A stretch of 60,039 nt of DNA from Nocardia ninae NBRC 108245 (GTDB taxonomy: Bacteria > Actinomycetota > Actinomycetes > Mycobacteriales > Mycobacteriaceae): NCBI RefSeq assembly GCF_007990755.1, contig NZ_BJXA01000057.1:1-60039 (forward strand). Direction: 5' to 3'. The translations under genes were made by a program, and so were the position numbers. Positions 47,865-60,039 of this stretch are shown here, in pieces. Below the pieces are notes generated by a model that worked only from the letters and a program-made list of their open reading frames with translations, was not told the DNA's origin and ran no database searches. Position 1 is the first letter of the stretch; every line of letters starts with the position of its first letter.

Positions 47865-48701
47865 ATGGAAATCTTCTGCATAATTCTGCTTGTCTATCTC
47901 GTCTTCGCGGAGCCATTTTTCGAGATATTCTCGGTCCGCGTCTTCACGCGTGAATTCGGTGCGCGATCCGACGCGCGCGTGCGCCTGTACCAGGGCGGCG
48001 TCTTCCGCACCTGGGCCACGCTGGCGGTCATCATCGTGGCGTTCGCGGTGAGCGGCACCTCGGTGCACGAGCTCGGGCTGACCCACTTCGACTTCAGCGT
48101 CTTCCGCGGCTTCTCGCTCGCGGAGAAGATCATCAGCCTGGCCATCGTCACCATCTACGTCTCGTATCTGTTTGGCCCCGTGCTGATTCCGCTGCTCGGC
48201 GGGCAGCGCGGCAAGGACTGGATCGCGAGCAAGATCGAGTACGTCGTCTTCATCACGCCGGAGACCTCCATCGAGCGGTTCTGGTGGCTGGCGAACTCCT
48301 TCAGCACGCCCGCCGAGGAGGTCGTCTACCGCGGCTTCACCATCTACGCGGTGGCGCTGCTCTGGCCGGACCTGCCCTTCTGGATCCTGATCATCGTTGC
48401 CGGTGGCGTCATCGATGGCCTGCGGCACGGATTCCGGCCTGCCGTCTCCGCCCAGGTGATATTCGGTGGCGTCGCGCTGGCGCTCACCTACAAATTGACC
48501 GGTGCGATCTGGCCGACCATCGCGGTGAAGCTCTTCCACGACCTGCGCGTGCTGGCATTCCCGCTGGCCCAGGCCCGGCGCAATCTGGCCGCGCGTGGAT
48601 TGTCCGAAATTCCCGGGAAAACCCTGAGCGACCATAATGTCCCCGCCGTCGCGGACAATACTGAAAATTCAGTCGAGCCACGTACTTCTGTTTCTACGTA
48701 G
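47865..48701 (+). CDS. CPBP-family intramembrane protease-like protein (Abi/CAAX type)
   Basis: A 278-residue protein with about six to seven hydrophobic segments. It carries the CPBP motifs: Glu151-Glu152 and Arg156 in AEEVVYRGF, His188 in DGLRHGF, and His225 in VKLFHD. CPBP proteases (Rce1 relatives) cleave in the membrane and serve in bacteriocin maturation or immunity, and some act as regulators. The C-terminal ~45 residues are hydrophilic. It is 16 bases upstream of the first PKS gene, so it belongs to the cluster operon. A role in self-resistance, export or processing is inference. Confidence 0.88.
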   Translation: MEIFCIILLVYLVFAEPFFEIFSVRVFTREFGARSDARVRLYQGGVFRTWATLAVIIVAFAVSGTSVHELGLTHFDFSVFRGFSLAEKIISLAIVTIYVSYLFGPVLIPLLGGQRGKDWIASKIEYVVFITPETSIERFWWLANSFSTPAEEVVYRGFTIYAVALLWPDLPFWILIIVAGGVIDGLRHGFRPAVSAQVIFGGVALALTYKLTGAIWPTIAVKLFHDLRVLAFPLAQARRNLAARGLSEIPGKTLSDHNVPAVADNTENSVEPRTSVST

Positions 48702-48717
48702 TAGGGATAGTGCTTAG

Positions 48718-57016: not shown

Positions 57017-59982
57017 CCCACGACGACAGCGAGTTCCGGGTCGCGGTGATCGGCATGGCGTGCCGATTCCCGGACGCGGACACCGTCACCGAGTACTGGC
57101 GCAACCTGTGCGAGGGCCGCGAATCGGTGCGGCCGCTCGCGCCGGAGGCCATGCCCGCCGACCCGCCCGCCGGTTACGTGCACGCGGGCGCGTTGCTCGC
57201 TGACGCCGACAAGTTCGACGCGGAGTTCTTCGAAATGACCCCGCGCGAAGCGCAACTCACCGACCCGCAGCACCGCCTGTTCACGCTGTGCGCCTGGGAG
57301 GCGCTGGAGGACGCCGGGCATATCGCGGCCGAAAAGCCCACGCCGGTCGGTGTTTTCGCGGGCGCGGGCATCAGCACCTATCTGCTGCGCAACCTGGTCG
57401 GGCACGCGAGCGTGTTCCAGAGCCCCAGCTCGCAGCTGCACGCATTGCACGGCAACGCCTCCGACTACATGGCCACCAAGGTGTCCTACAAGCTGAACCT
57501 GACCGGTCCCAGCGTCGCCGTGCAGACGGCGTGTTCCACCTCGCTGGTCGCCGTGCACCAGGCCGCGCAGGCGCTGCTCGACTTCCAGTGCGACGTGGCG
57601 CTGGCCGGTGGTGCCAGCGTGCAGGTGCCGCAGGAGGCCGGCTACATCTACGAGGAGGGGTCGATCCTCTCCCCGGACGGCCACTGCCGGGCGTTCGATG
57701 CCGACGCGGGCGGCACCGTCTTCGGCTCGGGTGTCGGCGTTGTCGTGCTCAAGCGGCTCGCCGACGCGATCGCCGACGGCGACCACATCCACGCCGTCAT
57801 TCTGGGCTCCGCGGTGAACAACGACGGCGCCAACAAGATCGGCTACACCGCCCCCGGCATCGCGGGCCAGCGCGCCGTCATCCGAGAAGCGTTGTCGGCG
57901 GCCGGAATTAGCGCCGACACCATCGGCTACGTCGAGGCGCACGGCACCGGAACCAAACTCGGCGACCCGATCGAGGTGTCGGCGCTGAGCGCGGCATACC
58001 GCGAGCACACCGACGCGACCCAGTACTGCGCGCTCGGTTCGGTGAAAGCCAATGTCGGTCACCTCAATTCGGCGGGCGGCGTCGCGGGGTTCATCAAGGC
58101 GGTGCTCGCCGTGCGTGAGGGCCGTATTCCGGCCAGCTTGCACTACACCCGGCCGAATCCCGAAATAGATTTCGCGGCAAGCCCGTTCTTCGTCAACACA
58201 GAACTGCGGGCCTGGTCCGACGACGTGCGCCGGGCAGGCGTCAGCGCCTTCGGTATCGGCGGCACCAACGCCCACGTGATCGTGGAGCAGCCACCGACAC
58301 AAAAGCCCGCCACCGTGAACCCGGGACCGCGCGCACTGCTGTTCTCGGGCCGTACTGCCCAGGACGCCGACCGCATCGCTGCCCGGCTCGCCGAGCACCT
58401 GCGCGGCACCGACGCGGAACTCGCCTCCGTCGCACACACTTTGGCGCACGGCCGCCGTACCTTCCCACATCGCCGCATGGTCGTGGCGAGCACCACCGAA
58501 GAGGCCGCAGCCGCGCTCGGTAAGCCCGCTGTGGGGGAGGCCATACCGTCCCCCGCGCTCGCCTGGTTGTTCCCCGGCCAGGGCGTCGCATTAGGCACCG
58601 CCGTCCTCGAACTCGCCGCGAGCGTCCGGCAATTCGGCGACCGATTCCGCGAATGCGCGGACATCCTGCGCGACCGCACCGGCTTCGACCTGGAGTCCGC
58701 GGTACGCAACGGCGACGGCACCGAACAGACTCAGGTCGCGTTGTTCGCGGTCGAATACGCACTGGCTGAGATGTGGCGCGAGTTCGGCGCCGAACCACGG
58801 GATCTGCTGGGTCACAGCCTCGGCGAGCTCGTCTGCGCCACCCTCGCGGGCGTCTTCGAGCTGCCCGACGCGCTGGCCCTGGTGGTCGAGCGCGGCCGAA
58901 TCATGGCGGCGGCACCGCCCGGCGGCATGCTCGCCGTCTCCAAGGGCGTGGACGTCATCGCCGCCCGCCTGCCGGAGGACGTGTGGCTCGCCGCCGACAA
59001 CTCCGCCACTCGCTGCGTTGTGGCCGGCGCACCCGCGCCGCTGTTCCGTTTGGCCGGTGAGCTGTCGGAGGAGGGTGTCCCGAACTCGCTGCTGCCCGTC
59101 GGGCACGCGTTCCACACGCCCCTCATGGACGAGGCAGCGGCCCGCTTCGCGGAGCTCGTGCGTGGCGTGCCGCGGCAGGCCCAGCAGGTCCCGTTCTGGT
59201 CCAACGTCACCGGTGCGCCGATCACCGCCGAGCAGGCGGTGGACCCCGGCTACTGGGCTCGGCAGATGACCAGCACGGTGCGCTTCCGGGAGGCCGCCGT
59301 CGGCCTGGTCGGCAGGAATCAGGGGACGGTCGCGCTGGAGGTCGGCCCGGGGAAGTCGCTGGTCTCGTTCCTGCGCACCGCCGATCGGGCAGCGGCGACG
59401 GTCGGCAGCCTCGGCACGGGCTCGGCCGAGTCCGCGATCGTGGACGCGGCGGCACGACTCTGGTTATCCGGTGTCACGGTCGATTTCGACGCCATCTACG
59501 GCGGCGAGACACCGGCCACCGTCAGCTTGCCGACGTATCCCTTTGCCCTCAAACGCTATTGGGTCGACCCGCCGGAAGCAGTACCCACCCGGCGCTTCGA
59601 CACCGAGCGACCCGCCCCGGCGGCGCCGGTGAAAAGCGATGACACCGCGACAGACGACGAGGACGACTTCGTGGTCTCGGTGCGCAACCGGGTCGTCTCG
59701 GTCTGGTGCGCGGCGCTCGGTGTCGAGCAGATCGGCGGTGACGCGAATTTCTTCGAGGCGGGCGGCGATTCGCTGCTCGCGGTGCACGTGGCGACCCAGC
59801 TGCGCGCCGTCTTCCCGTTGGAACTGGCCCTCGGCGAGCTGTTCGCCGCGCCGACGGCTGCGGGGATGGCCGACACCATCGCCGCACATCTGATGCAGCG
59901 GTTGGACGAACTGTCCGACAGCGAGGTCGAGCAACTGCTCGAGCAGCCGGGGGCGGCCGAAGAACGGAGCAACAATGCCTGA
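57013..59982 (+). CDS. Type I polyketide synthase, KS-AT-ACP
   Basis: A 989-residue PKS module. Ketosynthase (about 8-440): Cys174 in QTACSTSLVAVH, His310 in EAHGTGTK, His350 in ANVGHLNSAGG. Acyltransferase (about 510-790): Ser602 in GHSLGELVCA and HAFH at 698-701, the usual malonyl-CoA signature. Carrier: Ser920 in AGGDSLLA. No reductive domains. The QTACSTS active site is the form common in KS domains of hybrid NRPS-PKS lines, consistent with taking a peptidyl chain from the preceding NRPS. An ATGA overlap couples it to the NRPS, and it overlaps the next gene by eight bases. Confidence 0.95.
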   Translation: MTHDDSEFRVAVIGMACRFPDADTVTEYWRNLCEGRESVRPLAPEAMPADPPAGYVHAGALLADADKFDAEFFEMTPREAQLTDPQHRLFTLCAWEALEDAGHIAAEKPTPVGVFAGAGISTYLLRNLVGHASVFQSPSSQLHALHGNASDYMATKVSYKLNLTGPSVAVQTACSTSLVAVHQAAQALLDFQCDVALAGGASVQVPQEAGYIYEEGSILSPDGHCRAFDADAGGTVFGSGVGVVVLKRLADAIADGDHIHAVILGSAVNNDGANKIGYTAPGIAGQRAVIREALSAAGISADTIGYVEAHGTGTKLGDPIEVSALSAAYREHTDATQYCALGSVKANVGHLNSAGGVAGFIKAVLAVREGRIPASLHYTRPNPEIDFAASPFFVNTELRAWSDDVRRAGVSAFGIGGTNAHVIVEQPPTQKPATVNPGPRALLFSGRTAQDADRIAARLAEHLRGTDAELASVAHTLAHGRRTFPHRRMVVASTTEEAAAALGKPAVGEAIPSPALAWLFPGQGVALGTAVLELAASVRQFGDRFRECADILRDRTGFDLESAVRNGDGTEQTQVALFAVEYALAEMWREFGAEPRDLLGHSLGELVCATLAGVFELPDALALVVERGRIMAAAPPGGMLAVSKGVDVIAARLPEDVWLAADNSATRCVVAGAPAPLFRLAGELSEEGVPNSLLPVGHAFHTPLMDEAAARFAELVRGVPRQAQQVPFWSNVTGAPITAEQAVDPGYWARQMTSTVRFREAAVGLVGRNQGTVALEVGPGKSLVSFLRTADRAAATVGSLGTGSAESAIVDAAARLWLSGVTVDFDAIYGGETPATVSLPTYPFALKRYWVDPPEAVPTRRFDTERPAPAAPVKSDDTATDDEDDFVVSVRNRVVSVWCAALGVEQIGGDANFFEAGGDSLLAVHVATQLRAVFPLELALGELFAAPTAAGMADTIAAHLMQRLDELSDSEVEQLLEQPGAAEERSNNA

Positions 59983-60039
59983 ACTCGTCGATTCGGGAGC
60001 GTCGCGCCGCGCGTTGCTGCGCCGCTGGGCCGCCGGTGG
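59975..60039 (+). CDS. Start of next biosynthetic gene (partial, N-terminus only)
   Basis: Twenty-one codons from the ATG at 59975 to the window end. CGGAG precedes the ATG, and the frame overlaps the PKS stop by eight bases, as do other junctions in the cluster. The sequence (SGASRRALLRRWAAG) looks like the basic helical start common on NRPS proteins, but this is too short to identify. Confidence 0.6.
   Translation, partial: MPELVDSGASRRALLRRWAAG

What the first reader, a model, noticed from the sequence alone, without database searches (positions are those of the whole stretch)
47865..60039. Hybrid PKS-NRPS cluster with Pks13-like loading module and no reductive domains
Seen: CPBP protein, ACP-KS-AT-ACP, C-PCP-C-A-PCP, KS-AT-ACP and the start of another gene, with overlaps of 17, 4 and 8 bases between the enzymes. 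The first PKS has the carrier-first layout of Pks13, where the N-terminal ACP takes an acyl-AMP from a FAAL ligase, but lacks its thioesterase. Inference: an acyl chain extended by a non-reduced malonyl unit, two amino acids, then another non-reduced unit, giving a beta-keto acyl peptide. I do not recognise this combination from any known pathway.
Basis: partly seen in the sequence, partly recalled or inferred. Interest (0 to 1): 0.78.

Follow-up and report, generated by a model that had tools for sequence, protein, structure and literature searches.

The report
Conserved Nocardia lipopeptide assembly line
The window holds the front half of an enzyme assembly line, conserved in a group of Nocardia species, that probably joins a fatty acid, a three-carbon acid and amino acids into a small lipid-peptide whose structure and purpose are still unknown.

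Summary
In detail: genes, domains and the 17, 4 and 8 base overlaps are as described. The contig ends at the window's end. The operon continues at the start of contig C84 of the same genome, about 19 bp further on by comparison with Nocardia suismassiliense. It adds C-A-methyltransferase-PCP-reductase, a FAAL, a BtrH-like protein, a stand-alone FkbH, a MaoC-SDR fusion and an ABC transporter.

All 11 genes occur in order in 13 of 14 other Nocardia genomes with an orthologous third enzyme; in the fourteenth the contig begins at that enzyme. The Pks13-like, FAAL-loaded start is supported. 'Two amino acids' and 'no reductive domains' do not hold for the whole cluster.

Best model: FAAL primes ACP1; FkbH puts glycerate on the A-less PCP1; C1 esterifies it; one amino acid, a ketide and N-methyl-Thr follow; the reductase releases an aldehyde that may close to a pyrrolinone. 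Loading of PCP1 and ring closure are inferred; a C-domain tree gave no support. My text searches listed nothing that looked like this cluster; MIBiG was not available. New variant of a known kind.

The parts
47865..48701 (+). CPBP (Rce1-like) membrane protein, first gene of the operon
   Evidence: Pfam PF02517 5.1e-7; PAEE[VI][VI]YRG and the downstream H in 13 of 14 copies aligned, the remaining one, G136, has a shortened frame; four TM-like stretches; 16 bases before the PKS1 start
48718..52020 (+). PKS1: ACP-KS-AT-ACP, 1100 aa
   Evidence: Pfam, Pks13 7uk4 alignment, NCBIfam Pks13 below cut-off
48742..48987 (+). ACP1 of PKS1, Pks13-like N-terminal loading ACP (approximate limits)
   Evidence: aligned to Pks13 N-ACP with the serine kept; GL[TS]S in 14 of 14 copies
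49057..50175 (+). KS1
   Evidence: Pfam 114-486; TACSSS in 14 of 14
50635..51573 (+). AT1, AFH motif (malonyl type by a recalled rule)
   Evidence: Pfam 640-952; AFH in 14 of 14
51763..51954 (+). ACP2
   Evidence: Pfam 1016-1079
52004..57016 (+). NRPS: C-PCP-C-A-PCP, 1670 aa; first module without A domain
   Evidence: Pfam; 14 copies aligned
52088..53470 (+). C1, condensation domain of the A-less module
   Evidence: HMM; HHLxLDG in 14 of 14 (13, the fourteenth, G131)
53486..53683 (+). PCP1, the carrier without its own loader (approximate limits)
   Evidence: LGGTS in 14 of 14
53741..55123 (+). C2
   Evidence: HMM
55190..56623 (+). A2, adenylation domain; code read by eye as DALHVLLVA(K), no substrate assigned
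   Evidence: Pfam, motifs in 14 copies, PDB relatives
56705..56884 (+). PCP2
   Evidence: Pfam 1576-1635
57013..59982 (+). PKS2: KS-AT-ACP, 989 aa, no KR/DH listed
   Evidence: Pfam; 15 copies aligned
59975..60039 (+). Start of the C-A-MT-PCP-R gene, cut by the contig end; continues on contig C84 (L065:1-5556)

Best explanation
An 11-gene operon encodes a mixed PKS-NRPS line with six carrier domains and six loaders. Shown by sequence: the domains, their order and their conservation. Inferred: (1) the FAAL loads a fatty acid on ACP1 of the Pks13-like PKS1, which adds one malonyl unit; (2) the MaoC-SDR protein reduces and perhaps dehydrates the beta-keto group in trans; (3) the stand-alone FkbH charges the A-less PCP1 with glycerate from 1,3-bisphosphoglycerate, and C1 joins the acyl chain to its hydroxyl as an ester, as described for the FAAL-ACP-C-FkbH-T start of vioprolide; (4) C2-A2-PCP2 adds one unassigned amino acid; (5) PKS2 adds a malonyl unit whose keto group stays; (6) C3-A3-MT-PCP3 adds N-methyl-threonine; (7) the reductase releases an aldehyde, which can close on the beta-ketoamide carbon to a 3-acyl-pyrrolin-2-one. 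The ABC pair exports it. The BtrH-like protein and the CPBP protein may trim or transfer the acyl chain, or protect the host.
For: Domains in the window and on C84. Six carriers against AT1, AT2, A2, A3, FAAL and FkbH, counted from these calls. The 11 genes recur in order in 13 of 14 other genomes. ACP1 and PCP1 serines, KS1 cysteine and A2 P-loop 14 of 14; FAAL P-loop, FkbH DLDGTLWGG, reductase and SDR YxxxK 15 of 15. N-ACP and KS align to Pks13. The FAAL matches 15 distinct solved sequences at 1e-40, among them FadD32, FadD23 and FadD28 fatty-acid-AMP ligases. C-FkbH-T modules that esterify glycerate behind a FAAL are described (PMC10099666, PMC8949500, passages). FkbH tree: this FkbH groups with five long stand-alone FkbHs, three of which are annotated near discrete ACP genes, and lies far from the short kind seen beside dehydrogenase and ACP genes. 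A3 reads DFWNIGMVH, the Thr code as I recall it, in 11 of 15 copies; the other four have V for I, one of them also S for N. The reductase matches MxaA best and psoA's reductase weakly; release by an R domain followed by Knoevenagel closure to a pyrrolinone is the route proposed for fungal lines (PMC7421883, passages).
Against: In a tree of 36 C domains C1 sits alone on a long branch and does not join the C domains of three C-FkbH-T modules, which do not group with each other either (one group in 22% of 200 bootstrap trees): inconclusive, not support. The FkbH is outside the clade that holds the eight FkbHs I labelled as embedded, so loading of PCP1 in trans has no direct precedent here. A2 could charge PCP1 instead. 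No alpha/beta-hydrolase of the fungal Knoevenagel kind was found among the 11 genes. MaoC-SDR could act on ACP3 and remove the keto group that closure needs. The Pfam match of the BtrH-like protein is below its cut-off and its model is poor (mean pLDDT 50.4).
Confidence: 0.45

Rival explanations
1. A2 charges both PCP1 and PCP2 in cis, so two identical amino acids enter; FkbH serves some other step.
For: One A domain serving several PCPs is known from yersiniabactin synthetase (recalled). A2 and PCP1 lie in one protein.
Against: It leaves FkbH, kept in 15 of 15 copies with its DLDGTLWGG motif, without a carrier; no discrete ACP gene was found among the 11 genes.
Confidence: 0.22
2. FkbH loads glycerate on ACP1 as a polyketide starter, and the FAAL loads a fatty acid on PCP1 or acylates later.
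For: FkbH domains act as starters in some PKS (recalled); FkbH is said to be commoner in PKS lines (PMC8949500, passage).
Against: ACP1 and KS1 align to Pks13, whose N-ACP takes a FAAL product (recalled); the FAAL and this ACP occur together in the operon.
Confidence: 0.13
3. The line is as proposed but release gives a plain peptide aldehyde or alcohol, a protease-inhibitor type or a chelator, with no ring.
For: Thioester reductases usually give aldehydes or alcohols (recalled; MxaA relatives); no Knoevenagel-type hydrolase was found in the block.
Against: A KS-AT-ACP without KR directly before C-A-MT-PCP-R puts a beta-ketoamide next to the aldehyde, the set-up that closes in fungal lines.
Confidence: 0.35
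4. The operon is a decayed or incomplete copy of a known cluster.
For: The window's last gene is cut.
Against: The cut is a contig end; the remainder is open on C84 and all 11 genes occur in 13 of 14 relatives, though the CPBP frame is shortened in one, G136.
Confidence: 0.02

Closest known systems
Vioprolide and corramycin starter modules FAAL-ACP-C-FkbH-T (PMC10099666, PMC8949500; passages read)
   Same: FAAL, ACP, a C domain, FkbH and a T domain without A domain at the start; described acyl ester of glycerate
   Different: Here a KS-AT-ACP lies between the FAAL-loaded ACP and C1; FAAL and FkbH are separate proteins; C1 does not group with the C domains of three C-FkbH-T modules; FkbH is outside the clade of those I labelled embedded
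Pks13 of mycolic acid synthesis, with FadD32
   Same: N-terminal ACP joined to KS, aligned over 526 residues; the operon's FAAL resembles FadD32 among others
   Different: No thioesterase; hands on to an NRPS; NCBIfam Pks13 score 737 against a cut-off of 2100
Fungal PKS-NRPS with terminal R domain (pseurotin, fusarin, cytochalasin; PMC7421883, passages read)
   Same: Beta-keto polyketide unit, one amino acid module, reductive release
   Different: Bacterial, split proteins, no hydrolase of the Knoevenagelase kind found, methyltransferase domain with A3, an acyl-peptide ahead of the ketide
Bacterial pyrrolinones and reductive ring closure
   Same: Jamaicamides hold a pyrrolinone and start with a stand-alone FAAL (PMC11837247, passage); PMC12304814 reports reductive cyclisation of polyketide chains to a butenolide in bacteria (abstract start in a search listing only)
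   Different: Not compared gene by gene; so a pyrrolinone or reductive closure would not by itself be new to bacteria
Nocobactin lines of Nocardia (PMC7413640, passages read)
   Same: Fatty acid activated, extended by a PKS, reduced, ester-linked
   Different: The word FkbH does not occur in that paper's main text; MbtD and NbtC models match here far below cut-off
Tetronate-type and other stand-alone FkbH glyceryl transferases
   Same: Long FkbH with N-terminal domain, apparently acting in trans
   Different: No discrete ACP, KAS III or E2-like acyltransferase gene was found in this operon, unlike L121

Membership tests
Pks13-like FAAL-primed PKS | N-terminal ACP joined to KS and homologous to Pks13 | tested here: met
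   7uk4 aligned 9-534; NCBIfam NF040607 residues 11-536, 737 bits but below its full-length cut-off 2100
Pks13-like FAAL-primed PKS | FAAL partner in the locus | tested here: met
   L065:5553-7319; PRK05850 493 bits, FadD32 464 bits, each below its cut-off; FadD32, FadD23 and FadD28 among the solved matches; present in 15 of 15
Pks13-like FAAL-primed PKS | C-terminal thioesterase of Pks13 | tested here: not met
   no thioesterase in PKS1; so not a Pks13
C-FkbH-T glycerate module | C and T without A domain, plus FkbH in the locus | tested here: met
   C-PCP without A in 14 of 14 copies of that gene; FkbH in 15 of 15
C-FkbH-T glycerate module | FkbH of the embedded clade | tested here: not met
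   53 rows, SH-aLRT only; embedded labels are mine, by frame length and motif
C-FkbH-T glycerate module | ester-forming C domain kin | tested here: inconclusive
   long branches, three references not one group; no characterised ester-forming C domain was on hand
C-FkbH-T glycerate module | glyceryl on the T domain | not testable with these tools
   needs a loading assay
R-terminated PKS-NRPS | terminal thioester reductase with NADPH and YxxxK motifs | tested here: met
   TIGR01746 315.8 bits over cut-off 213.35; motifs 15 of 15
R-terminated PKS-NRPS | unreduced ketide module next to the last amino acid module | tested here: met
   PKS2 without KR/DH, C-A-MT-PCP-R next; action of MaoC-SDR on it not excluded
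R-terminated PKS-NRPS | pyrrolinone product | not testable with these tools
   needs the metabolite
Hydroxymalonyl/methoxymalonyl-ACP pathway (definition recalled) | short FkbH with acyl-CoA and hydroxyacyl-CoA dehydrogenases and discrete ACP | tested here: not met
   none of these among the 11 genes; FkbH outside the short clade that holds L123

The most novel reading that the evidence does not exclude
A stand-alone FkbH recruited in trans feeds glycerate to an NRPS module that has no A domain, and the line ends in a reductive release that makes a 3-acyl-pyrrolinone: a lipid-O-glyceryl-aminoacyl pyrrolinone built by a split, combined version of two logics best described from myxobacterial NRPS and fungal PKS-NRPS.
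Probability: 0.25. Interest if true: 0.7.

Novelty: new variant of a known kind. Interest (0 to 1): 0.5.

Why it matters
It would show that A-less NRPS modules can be fed a non-amino acid in trans by FkbH, give a testable rule for C-PCP modules that genome miners cannot read, and point to a compound class in Nocardia that my searches did not find described. All 11 genes occur in 13 other genomes, and two contigs of this genome hold the operon but for about 19 bp, so the chemistry can be tested directly.

Tried and rejected
Decayed copy: rejected, the cut is a contig end. Hydroxymalonyl or methoxymalonyl extender: rejected for lack of the dehydrogenases and by the FkbH tree. C-domain tree as a test of ester formation: led nowhere. 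Plasmid collection for a C1-PCP1 relative: no match at 1e-60. Phylum search for C1-PCP1 at 1e-90 over 346 genomes: only the window itself (threshold too strict to say more). Solved relatives of the BtrH-like protein: none at E 1; its AlphaFold model has mean pLDDT 50.4 and was not used in a fold search. Substrate of A2: not assigned; nearest solved domains are generic. Insert between C1 and PCP1 in divergent copies: no Pfam match at E 1 for the two stretches tested, none beyond C, A and PP-binding in four whole proteins at E 0.001. FkbH hits in long frames of Actinomycetota (L112-L115): no C motif found in any of the four, KS motif in three; left out of the C tree. L152 (1771-aa frame) also had no C motif and falls outside the embedded FkbH clade.

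Rows dropped before counts: G090 from the PKS1 and NRPS alignments, because its contig starts at PKS2 and the hits there were paralogues; whether its first genes lie on another contig was not tested. G131's C1 motif was missing through trimming and found. G136's PKS2 row is cut by the fetched stretch. Of the four weaker hits, G068 and G121 were not fetched; G112 and G087 were and show no match for CPBP, FAAL, BtrH-like, FkbH, MaoC-SDR or transporter genes at 1e-20 in the stretches fetched.

Text searches, papers holding the terms: FkbH+FAAL 3, Nocardia+FkbH+NRPS 3 (35), vioprolide+FkbH+glycer 6 (47), FkbH+condensation domain+glyceryl 2 (48), Nocardia+gene cluster families+nocobactin 5 (86), Knoevenagel and three other terms 5 (87), vioprolide or previoprolide 49 with 10 listed (103), Nocardia+FAAL+biosynthetic gene cluster 7 (106), BtrH+acyltransferase+gene cluster 3 (107). 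By title and start of abstract none looked like this cluster; the foxicin paper PMC5318452, which holds FkbH and glyceryl, was seen in the listing only. Subscription papers and MIBiG were not searchable.
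Full report
What is there. The fifth gene begins at 59975 and is cut because the contig ends at 60039.

The missing half. G127 is taken to be N. suismassiliense S-137 because contig length and place agree with NZ_LT985361.1. A search of the window's own genome with the fifth gene of G127 (locus L052) finds contig C84 from base 1 on, 97% identical over residues 29-1879. C84 (locus L065) carries, with coordinates: 1-5556 C-A-methyltransferase-PCP-reductase; 5553-7319 FAAL; 7316-8275 a BtrH_N-like protein, below Pfam's cut-off; 8278-10020 FkbH; 10255-11802 MaoC plus SDR; 11765-12724 ABC ATPase; 12717-13499 ABC permease (Pfam; NCBIfam names the FAAL kin, FkbH and the thioester reductase and has no match for the BtrH-like protein; Pfam on the N. 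suismassiliense copies agrees).

Conservation. Of 150 Nocardia genomes searched with the third enzyme, 19 including our own match at 1e-200. Fifteen including our own match at 69% identity or more; four others (G068, G087, G112, G121) at 43-48%. I fetched the 14 other orthologous regions and two of the four weaker ones. All 11 genes are present in order in 13 of 14; in G090 the contig starts at the third enzyme, which is followed by the other seven genes; G112 and G087 lack the accessory genes in the stretches fetched. The MFS gene upstream is beside the block in 9 of 14 and not in G018, G136, G092 or G131 (G090's upstream is not on its contig), so I place the border at the CPBP gene.

Motif counts. 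ACP1 serine 14 of 14, KS1 cysteine 14 of 14, PCP1 LGGTS 14 of 14, C1 HHLxLDG 14 of 14 (G131 found only after untrimming), FkbH DLDGTLWGG 15 of 15, reductase TGATGFVG 15 of 15, MaoC GDRNPLH and SDR GGSRGLG 15 of 15. PKS2's ACP motif is seen in 14 of 15; G136's row is cut by the fetched stretch. C2 reads HHxxCDA instead of HHxxCDG in 5 of 14. In G136 the CPBP frame is only 158 aa.

Start of the line. PKS1 aligns to Pks13 (7uk4) over ACP and KS as one stretch, serine over serine. The FAAL matches 15 distinct solved sequences at 1e-40, among them FadD32, FadD23 and FadD28 ligases; the best, 7r7e, is named only polyketide synthase. So the Pks13-like reading of the start is sound, though without thioesterase it is not a Pks13.

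The A-less module. There are six carriers and six loaders: two AT, two A, FAAL, FkbH. PCP1 has no loader of its own, and no discrete ACP for FkbH was found in the operon. The missing A domain is not a one-off: Pfam finds a single AMP-binding domain in the window's NRPS and in four divergent copies (G018, G136, G131 and L033, the G092 record), and in the other nine copies 357-361 residues separate the C1 motif from the PCP1 motif, as in the window with 360. In vioprolide and corramycin a FAAL-ACP-C-FkbH-T start is described to put glycerate on the T domain and esterify it with the fatty acid (PMC10099666 and PMC8949500, passages read). I therefore take PCP1 as glyceryl carrier.

Tests of that. 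A 53-row FkbH tree puts this FkbH with five long stand-alone FkbHs (SH-aLRT 98), three of which (L118, L119, L122) are annotated near discrete ACP genes. It lies outside a clade of 12 rows that holds all eight FkbHs I had labelled embedded, and far from the short kind such as L123, which sits beside dehydrogenase and ACP genes; one more FkbH in a long frame, L152, also falls outside. This fits a protein acting in trans, but is not proof of its carrier. I found three C-FkbH-T modules in other phyla (L155, L160, L161; Pfam run on L155 only, the rest by position and motif). In a 36-row tree C1 does not group with them, nor do they with one another (22% of 200 bootstrap trees): no support either way.

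A side finding. In three divergent copies the C1 to PCP1 motif distance is 459-493 instead of about 360, and in G131 the gap between C1 and C2 is 406 residues against 91 in the window. The added stretch had no Pfam match in the two copies tested.

End of the line. PKS2 has no KR or DH listed and is followed by C-A-MT-PCP-R. Read by eye, A3 is DFWNIGMVH, the Thr code as I recall it, in 11 of 15 copies; four have V for I and one of these also S for N. A2 is DALHVLLVA, which I cannot assign; it is kept but for single changes in G009 and G018. The reductase is above the cut-off of TIGR01746 and matches MxaA best. In fungal PKS-NRPS an R domain is proposed to give an aldehyde that closes by Knoevenagel reaction to a pyrrolinone, helped by an alpha/beta-hydrolase (PMC7421883, passages); no such hydrolase was found in this block. 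Ring closure is my inference. A pyrrolinone would not be new to bacteria as such: jamaicamides hold one (PMC11837247, passage).

Other genes. The BtrH-like protein keeps C14, H114 and D129 in 15 of 15, an order that fits the papain-like enzymes to which BtrH_N is said to belong (PMC10318531, passage). Its role, and that of the CPBP protein, is open: acyl transfer, removal of the acyl chain as proposed for vioprolide and corramycin, or self-protection.

Is it described? My text searches listed nothing that looked like this cluster by title and start of abstract. The two Nocardia genome surveys do not contain the word FkbH in the main text held (passages only, supplements not read). MIBiG and antiSMASH were not available. 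Most Nocardia clusters are uncharacterised (abstract passage of PMC12153302, says many remain so), so being unknown is not itself surprising; the combination is. I score it as a new variant of a known kind, interest 0.5.

Noticed in passing
window 40218-42638: Two neighbouring MPAB/Lcp-type oxygenase genes (PF09995); the second is also near the cluster in 5 of 14 other genomes, in G030 partly at the edge of the stretch.
   Followed up: partly
window 45815-47227 (-): MFS transporter gene divergent from the operon, beside it in 9 of 14 genomes; the 637-base gap before the CPBP gene, 57% GC, may hold the promoter.
   Followed up: partly
L032:6392-6751, L033:6302-6733 and the G018 and G131 copies: An extra stretch without Pfam match between C1 and PCP1, where an A domain would sit; absent from the window's lineage. 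It could be a docking part for FkbH.
   Followed up: partly
G131 NRPS gene in L087, before PCP1: Short repeats (AGVAGE-like) run through the same extra stretch.
   Followed up: no
   Followed up: no
L115 (G000:C18), 1510-11595 (-): A 3362-aa frame with a KS motif and an FkbH domain at its C-terminal end; its FkbH groups with those of G276.
   Followed up: no
L155:4536-8318: TubC_N-C-FkbH-T protein followed by a KS-AT-PP-thioesterase frame, in a genome of the phylum of a Desulfobacterales bin: a glycerate-type module outside myxobacteria.
   Followed up: partly
L123 (Alkalihalophilus pseudofirmus plasmid): A BtrH N-terminal domain gene lies near a short FkbH gene with two dehydrogenase and two carrier protein genes.
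   Followed up: no
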